Assembly: GCA_013003395.1 (NCBI GenBank)
Contig: JABDJC010000091.1
Location: forward strand, 1 to 32,386
DNA from: Acidimicrobiia bacterium
Lineage (GTDB): Bacteria > Actinomycetota > Acidimicrobiia > Spongiisociales > UBA5794
Reading direction: 5' to 3'
DNA length: 32,386 bases
Below, in pieces: positions 13,406 through 13,873 of the stretch (its first letter is position 1; the number at the start of each line of letters is the position of its first letter). A model generated the notes under the pieces. It was not told the origin of the DNA and made no database searches. It was given only the letters and a program-made list of their open reading frames with translations. The translations under genes were made by a program, and so were the position numbers.

Positions 13406-13873
13406 ATGTCGGACGTGAAGTACACCGCAAACGTCAAAGTCGAACGGTTGCGAGGGCCGATGCGAAAAGCCTGGCTACCGGCTCGAGATGAGCACATCAC
13501 CTTCGGCGTACACAGCGACATCGCCGAGCATTACAACGTTGCTCCGGACGACTTCCCACCGGATGCCACCACCCTCGACTATGTGATCGCAGCTGCCGCC
13601 GGTTGACTGACGGGAACCTTCGGGGGCGCGCTGGAAGCGCGCGGCATCAATGCAAGCGACGGAAATCTCGTCTCGGACACCGTCGGCGAAGTCGAGCTCG
13701 ATGGCAAGGTGCTGGTCATCAAACGCATCAAGACGACCTACACGTTGGCGGGCGTCGCGGTCGATGACAGAGAAACGGTTGCGCGAGTGCTCGAGTTCCA
13801 CGCCGATTTCTGTCCTGTCGCTCGCAGCATCGGCGGGTGCATCGACATCACCACCGAAGTCGAGTACGTCTGA
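13406..13873 (+). CDS. OsmC-family protein with in-frame UGA at codon 67 (candidate selenocysteine residue)
   Basis: AGGAGG SD at 13395-13400 and ATG at 13406. Frame: MSDVKYTANVKVERLRGPMRKAWLPARDEHITFGVHSDIAEHYNVAPDDFPPDATTLDYVIAAAAG-[UGA 13604-13606]-LTGTFGGALEARGINASDGNLVSDTVGEVELDGKVLVIKRIKTTYTLAGVAVDDRETVARVLEFHADFCPVARSIGGCIDITTEVEYV-stop (13871-13873). OsmC features lie on both sides of the UGA, including the second-Cys motif HADFCPVARSI. Confidence 0.78.
13626..13642 (+). promoter_or_regulatory. Candidate bacterial SECIS hairpin downstream of the in-frame UGA
   Basis: Perfect 6-bp stem GCGCGC (13626-13631), loop UGGAA (13632-13636), GCGCGC (13637-13642). There are 25 nt between the UGA and the apical loop, and a G at loop position 2. 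Confidence 0.5.

What the first reader, a model, noticed from the sequence alone, without database searches (positions are those of the whole stretch)
13406..13873. OsmC-family gene with in-frame UGA at the first catalytic cysteine position: candidate selenoprotein missed by ORF calling
Seen directly: a 156-codon frame (including stop) with a good SD (AGGAGG, 5 nt spacer) is broken by one UGA at 13604-13606 (codon 67). The frame then continues 88 sense codons to UGA at 13871. Upstream ends TTLDYVIAAAAG; downstream begins LTGTFGGALEARGI and later has HADFCPVARSI. Established: OsmC/Ohr proteins use two conserved cysteines, the first just after an AAxG-like segment (as in AAGGC) and the second in a CPV/CSV-type motif. 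The UGA sits exactly at the first Cys and the second Cys is intact. OsmC-like proteins have, to my recollection, appeared among predicted bacterial selenoprotein families. Inference: the UGA is read as selenocysteine, giving a 155-aa Sec peroxidase. Current ORF calls give only a 67-70 aa stub. Competing explanations are a Cys-to-stop point mutation or a sequencing error.
Basis: partly seen in the sequence, partly recalled or inferred. Interest (0 to 1): 0.88.

Follow-up and report, generated by a model that had tools for sequence, protein, structure and literature searches.

The report
Unannotated selenium-containing OsmC-type peroxidase
A gene that looks cut in two by a stop codon is very probably one whole gene for an OsmC-type peroxide-handling protein with selenocysteine at its active site; the same arrangement recurs in dozens of bacteria from several phyla, where databases record the protein as a fragment or misread it.

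Summary
A 155-codon OsmC-like frame (13406-13873) has one in-frame UGA at codon 67 (13604-13606), the first catalytic cysteine position, and the second cysteine (C136) is intact. The selenocysteine reading is strongly supported. The host MAG has selA, selB, selD and tRNA-Sec (UCA), and its SelD is itself a selenoprotein. Of 75 aligned rows with DNA (window copies included), 67 have UGA at this codon (61 distinct sequences), 7 have TGC/TGT and one off-family row has GAC. A hairpin 20-36 nt after the UGA meets all four published bacterial SECIS constraints, and its codons are the most synonymously conserved in the gene. UGA forms occur in selA-bearing genomes (35 of 37 in one test), Cys forms mostly in selA-less ones (1 of 5 has selA). 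Databases hold the protein as 87-93 aa fragments starting just after the UGA, or with Trp at the position. OsmC-like selenoproteins are already known (NF041052, motif UxxT), but this is a different OsmC subfamily: no BLASTP alignment to a member of that family, and one genome carries both. I judge it a new variant of a known kind. Peroxidase activity is inferred; Sec insertion has not been shown experimentally.

The parts
13395..13400 (+). Shine-Dalgarno AGGAGG, 5-nt spacer to ATG
   Evidence: Read directly in the sequence.
13406..13873 (+). OsmC-superfamily selenoprotein gene, 155 aa with Sec67; the terminal codon is UGA
   Evidence: PF02566 39.6 bits; AlphaFold2 mean pLDDT 95.3; best PDB fold matches are OsmC/Ohr proteins; 67 of 75 aligned rows have UGA at the same codon.
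13604..13606 (+). In-frame UGA, read as selenocysteine (Sec67) at the peroxidatic-Cys position
   Evidence: Aligned with Cys in Cys homologs and with the catalytic Cys of Thermus thermophilus OsmC 1ukk.
13626..13642 (+). SECIS-like hairpin: stem GCGCGCU/AGCGCGC, loop GGA; the loop begins 26 nt after the UGA
   Evidence: Pair probability 0.95 for six pairs and 0.77 for the closing U-A; synonymous conservation maximum at codons 74-78, z 15.9; complete stem in 52 of 61 UGA forms vs 10.4 expected from synonymous shuffles, 0 of 7 Cys forms.
13811..13813 (+). Cys136 (TGT) of the CPV motif, the resolving-Cys position
   Evidence: Invariant in alignment A1; TGC/TGT in the UGA loci.

Best explanation
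The gene encodes a full-length OsmC-superfamily selenoprotein. SelB, charged tRNA-Sec(UCA) and the hairpin at 13626-13642 recode UGA 13604-13606 as selenocysteine, while the terminal UGA at 13871 stops translation. By analogy with Ohr/OsmC (inferred), Sec67 acts as the peroxidatic residue: its selenolate reduces an organic hydroperoxide, the selenenic acid is attacked by Cys136 to form a Sec67-Cys136 selenenylsulfide, and a dithiol reductant (lipoylated proteins in Ohr) regenerates it. Shown here by computation: UGA conservation, Sec machinery, SECIS-like element, Cys homologs and OsmC fold. Inferred: Sec insertion itself, substrate and reductant.
For: Sec machinery in the same assembly: tRNA-Sec 73.1 bits, confirmed by ARAGORN with anticodon TCA; selB 335 bits; selA 414 bits, adjacent to selB; selD 402 bits with its own internal TGA in the motif HGAGUACK. 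UGA at codon 67 in 67 of 75 aligned rows, 61 distinct, across loci labelled Acidimicrobiia, Acidobacteria, Anaerolineae and Chloroflexi plus many families of the window's phylum. TGC/TGT in 7 homologs. SECIS: all four constraints of the published bSECIS model (PMC13188914) are met: 3-nt loop, 7-bp stem, GG at the loop start, 26-nt spacing, MFE -12.8 kcal/mol. Codons 74-78 share synonymous codons in 0.90 of pairs vs 0.40 expected (z 15.9), the gene's maximum. selA in 16 of 16 OsmC-positive class genomes, in 9 of 10 genomes of other loci, and in 35 of 37 UGA-form vs 1 of 5 Cys-form genomes (Fisher p 6e-4). Downstream dN/dS about 0.12-0.33. UGA is an ordinary stop elsewhere: 17 of the 22 main window genes end in TGA.
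Against: No protein-level proof. No compensatory double changes within the fixed hairpin register. Hairpin MFE alone is only modestly below synonymous shuffles (mean z -0.85). 9 of 61 UGA forms lack the complete stem in either register tested. The Cys forms with DNA all come from one family (f69), so the selA contrast is not phylogenetically independent. Peroxidase activity is untested; the Arg/Glu of the Ohr active site were not mapped.
Confidence: 0.95

Rival explanations
1. Pseudogene or sequencing error: a Cys codon mutated or miscalled to TGA, leaving a dead or wrongly assembled gene.
For: TGA is one base away from TGC/TGT; the window is from a MAG.
Against: The same TGA in 61 distinct sequences from independent genomes with otherwise open frames and downstream purifying selection.
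Confidence: 0.01
2. The UGA is a real stop and the downstream part is translated separately by restart at the CTG right after it, giving a two-piece OsmC (as NCBI fragments such as P0076, starting MTGTFGG, are annotated).
For: CTG follows the UGA in nearly all loci; public databases hold 27 such 87-93 aa fragments among the 120 listed hits.
Against: The split would fall inside one alpha-helix (residues 56-78) exactly at the catalytic residue. It explains neither the synonymous constraint on codons 74-78, nor the selA association, nor intact one-piece Cys homologs.
Confidence: 0.02
3. UGA is read as Trp (code 4) or by near-cognate suppression rather than as Sec.
For: 61 of the protein records retrieved carry Trp here, consistent with gene callers using code 4.
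Against: UGA terminates 17 of 22 main window genes, including housekeeping ones. Hosts encode tRNA-Sec, and the conserved alternative residue is Cys, not Trp, in homologs with table-11 codons.
Confidence: 0.01

Closest known systems
OsmC-like selenoprotein of the Sargasso Sea and GOS surveys (UxxT motif; PMC1088965, PMC2398784) and NCBIfam NF041052 'OsmC-related (seleno)protein'
   Same: OsmC superfamily with Sec at the first catalytic position of the fold.
   Different: Motif here is U-L-[TL]-G-T, not UxxT. NF041052 scores this protein 14.5 bits against a cut-off of 95. A NF041052 member in G090 (L049, motif U-M-L-T) gives no BLASTP alignment with it, and the same genome holds both (L049 and L035). 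That NF041052 and the Sargasso family are the same family is inferred from the shared UxxT motif.
Ohr / OsmC peroxiredoxins (e.g. X. fastidiosa Ohr, Cp Cys61, Cr Cys125; PMC5962072)
   Same: Fold (Foldseek E down to 4.6e-9, prob 1.00); two redox residues 69 apart here (67/136) vs 64 in XfOhr; CPV-type second site.
   Different: Only 11-19% sequence identity; Sec replaces the peroxidatic Cys; no match above the NCBIfam osmo_induc_OsmC or SACOL1771 cut-offs.
Cys-form OsmC homologs of Actinomycetota (P0077 Streptomyces, P0093 Actinomadura, L091-L097)
   Same: Same subfamily, full length, Cys at 67 and 136.
   Different: No UGA, and no complete hairpin in the 7 with DNA; mostly selA-less hosts among those tested.

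Membership tests
Bacterial selenoprotein (SelB/SECIS-dependent) | In-frame UGA at a conserved redox Cys position with Cys homologs | tested here: met
   67 UGA, 7 TGC/TGT at codon 67 of 75 rows.
Bacterial selenoprotein (SelB/SECIS-dependent) | Host encodes SelA, SelB, SelD and tRNA-Sec | tested here: met
Bacterial selenoprotein (SelB/SECIS-dependent) | bSECIS: 3-9 nt loop, 4-16 bp stem, G in the first two loop positions, 16-37 nt spacing, MFE <= -7.5 (PMC13188914) | tested here: met
   Loop GGA, 7 bp, 26 nt, -12.8 kcal/mol.
Bacterial selenoprotein (SelB/SECIS-dependent) | Selenium incorporated into the protein | not testable with these tools
   Needs 75Se labelling or mass spectrometry.
OsmC superfamily (PF02566) | Profile match over the curated cut-off and OsmC fold | tested here: met
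   39.6 bits vs 27.5; fold match to OsmC/Ohr structures.
OsmC superfamily (PF02566) | Two catalytic thiol positions | tested here: met
   Sec67 and Cys136 align with both Cys of 1ukk; C136 invariant in A1.
Known OsmC-like selenoprotein family NF041052 (UxxT) | NCBIfam score over cut-off; UxxT motif | tested here: not met
   14.5 vs 95 bits; motif ULTGT; no BLASTP alignment to L049.
Ohr/OsmC peroxidase (enzymatic) | Arg and Glu of the active site; hydroperoxide reduction with lipoyl reductant | not tested
   Residues not mapped structurally; no assay possible.

The most novel reading that the evidence does not exclude
A widespread Sec subfamily of OsmC, in which Sec and Cys have been exchanged several times and at least two lineages (the main one and the divergent f80 pair L099/L100, whose sequence after the UGA is different) use unrelated SECIS elements.
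Probability: 0.4. Interest if true: 0.6.

Novelty: new variant of a known kind. Interest (0 to 1): 0.52.

Why it matters
It adds a Sec-containing peroxidase-fold subfamily, found in many uncultured Actinomycetota and in Chloroflexota, that current NCBIfam models do not cover. Many of its database records are consequently truncated at the active site or carry a false tryptophan. It offers natural Sec/Cys pairs for asking what selenium adds to Ohr/OsmC chemistry, and a compact, highly conserved SECIS-like element in high-GC genomes.

Tried and rejected
Covariation in the fixed hairpin register: no compensatory double changes, so no covariation claim is made; a few sequences (L067, L083, L085, L090, L101) pair in a register shifted by two instead. 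Hairpin MFE against synonymous shuffles is only weakly informative in this GC-rich sequence. selA co-occurrence inside the window's order is uninformative because selA is near-universal there. A conserved gene neighbourhood was looked for and not found. Sequence search of the PDB gave no significant hit; the fold search did. One row (L098, GAC at the position) was dropped as not comparable.

Full report
Observation. The frame 13406-13873 is as described: AGGAGG at 13395-13400, ATG 13406, TGA as codon 67 at 13604-13606, 88 further sense codons, TGA at 13871. Read through, it is an OsmC-superfamily protein (PF02566, 39.6 bits). AlphaFold2 on a 32-row alignment gives mean pLDDT 95.3 with residue 67 inside helix 56-78 and C136 between two helices. 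The best PDB matches are Thermoplasma Ta0195, Deinococcus Ohr and other OsmC/Ohr structures. In the (weak, E 0.06) alignment with T. thermophilus OsmC (1ukk) both redox positions coincide with its cysteines.

Host machinery. The window lies in a 3.24-Mb, 82%-complete MAG, probably Acidimicrobiia (inferred from its nearest named relatives). It encodes tRNA-Sec (73.1 bits, anticodon TCA), selB and selA side by side and selD. The selD gene itself carries an in-frame UGA in the SelD motif HGAGUACK, so this organism very probably makes at least one canonical selenoprotein. UGA is otherwise a normal stop: 17 of the 22 main genes of the window end in it.

Comparative evidence. In the window's class, 15 of 16 matching genomes, the window's own included, carry the gene with exactly one TGA; the sixteenth has only a C-terminal fragment. 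Across the phylum the family is found in 49 of 399 genomes, mostly with one TGA. After extraction, 75 rows have TGA 67 times, TGC 6, TGT 1 and GAC 1 (an off-family row) at codon 67. Distinct sequences of at least 300 nt are 61 UGA and 7 Cys. Close pairs show similar purifying selection on both sides of the UGA. Database relatives fall into three main groups: forms with Trp at 67 (61 records, consistent with code-4 gene calling), fragments starting MTGTFGG or similar directly after the UGA (27 records), and true Cys forms. Two full-length hits (P0003, P0014) carry Leu at 67 and are unexplained.

SECIS. UGA plus 20-36 nt forms a GCGCGCU-GGA-AGCGCGC hairpin with pair probabilities of 0.95 for six pairs and 0.77 for the closing U-A. 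It meets the four constraints of the bacterial SECIS model as stated in PMC13188914. The codons under it show the strongest synonymous conservation in the gene: 0.90 of same-residue pairs share the codon at codons 74-78 against 0.40 expected, z 15.9, and all of the twelve best five-codon windows lie within codons 65-82. This null ignores shared ancestry, so the contrast with the rest of the gene is the stronger argument. The complete stem occurs in 52 of 61 UGA forms against 10.4 expected under synonymous shuffling, and in 0 of 7 Cys forms against 0.7 expected. Within the fixed register 91% of cells pair against at most 70% when the partner is slid, but there are no double compensatory changes.

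Machinery association. selA is present in all 16 OsmC-positive genomes of the class sample (background 200 of 296), in 9 of 10 genomes behind the loci from named records, and in 35 of 37 UGA-form genomes against 1 of 5 Cys-form genomes of the phylum sample (Fisher p 6e-4). The two UGA-form exceptions are 82% and 75% complete. The Cys forms tested come from one family, so this is not phylogenetically independent.

Evolution. A maximum-likelihood tree with the Sec/Cys column masked needs at least five Sec/Cys label changes, of which starred branches force two. Two divergent UGA forms (L099, L100) lie nearer to Cys forms and have a different sequence after the UGA (UGA AUG AUG), but on a long branch. 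The direction of change is not resolved.

Known families. OsmC-like selenoproteins were described from the Sargasso Sea with motif UxxT (PMC1088965; repeated in PMC13188914, PMC2398784 and PMC9312934), and NCBIfam has NF041052. The present protein fails that model (14.5 vs 95 bits), has motif ULTGT, and does not align by BLASTP to a NF041052 member with UxxT found in a genome that also carries the present gene. In the papers searchable here no second OsmC Sec form was found; subscription literature and unpublished lists could not be checked.

Mechanism. From established Ohr chemistry (PMC5962072) I infer that Sec67 is the peroxidatic residue and Cys136 the resolving one, with a selenenylsulfide intermediate. 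Substrate and reductant are untested, and the gene neighbourhood is not conserved, so context adds nothing.

Noticed in passing
L021:1501-2421 (G000 C47): Host SelD has an in-frame UGA in the motif HGAGUACK, a canonical Sec-SelD; it would be called as a fragment.
   Followed up: partly
L099, L100 (genomes G337, G467): Divergent UGA-form OsmC relatives with UGA AUG AUG after the site and a different putative hairpin; possibly a separate Sec lineage.
   Followed up: partly
P0003, P0014: Full-length close homologs carry Leu at position 67 instead of Sec or Cys (P0003 has a longest contig of 5.9 Mb); true loss or annotation artefact is unresolved.
   Followed up: no
24979-25581: 15-bp tandem repeats (about CCGGTGTCTTCGATC) encoding repeated PVSSI units inside a 2773-aa ORF (22387-30708).
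   Followed up: no
11771-13324: 517-aa ORF just upstream that looks like an MBL-fold hydrolase joined to a Rieske-type domain (by eye: CPHANQDL...CLGHHYEF); the association with the OsmC gene is not conserved in relatives.
   Followed up: partly
14608-18369, 9461-9986, 30737-32370: CoxM/CoxL/CoxS-like genes with CoxG-, CoxE- and MoxR-like genes elsewhere in the window: molybdenum hydroxylase-type set (by eye).
   Followed up: no
L057 and G109:C11:72243-72629: Further OsmC-like matches to NF041052 below its cut-off with one TGA inside; other possible Sec-OsmC candidates in the class.
   Followed up: no
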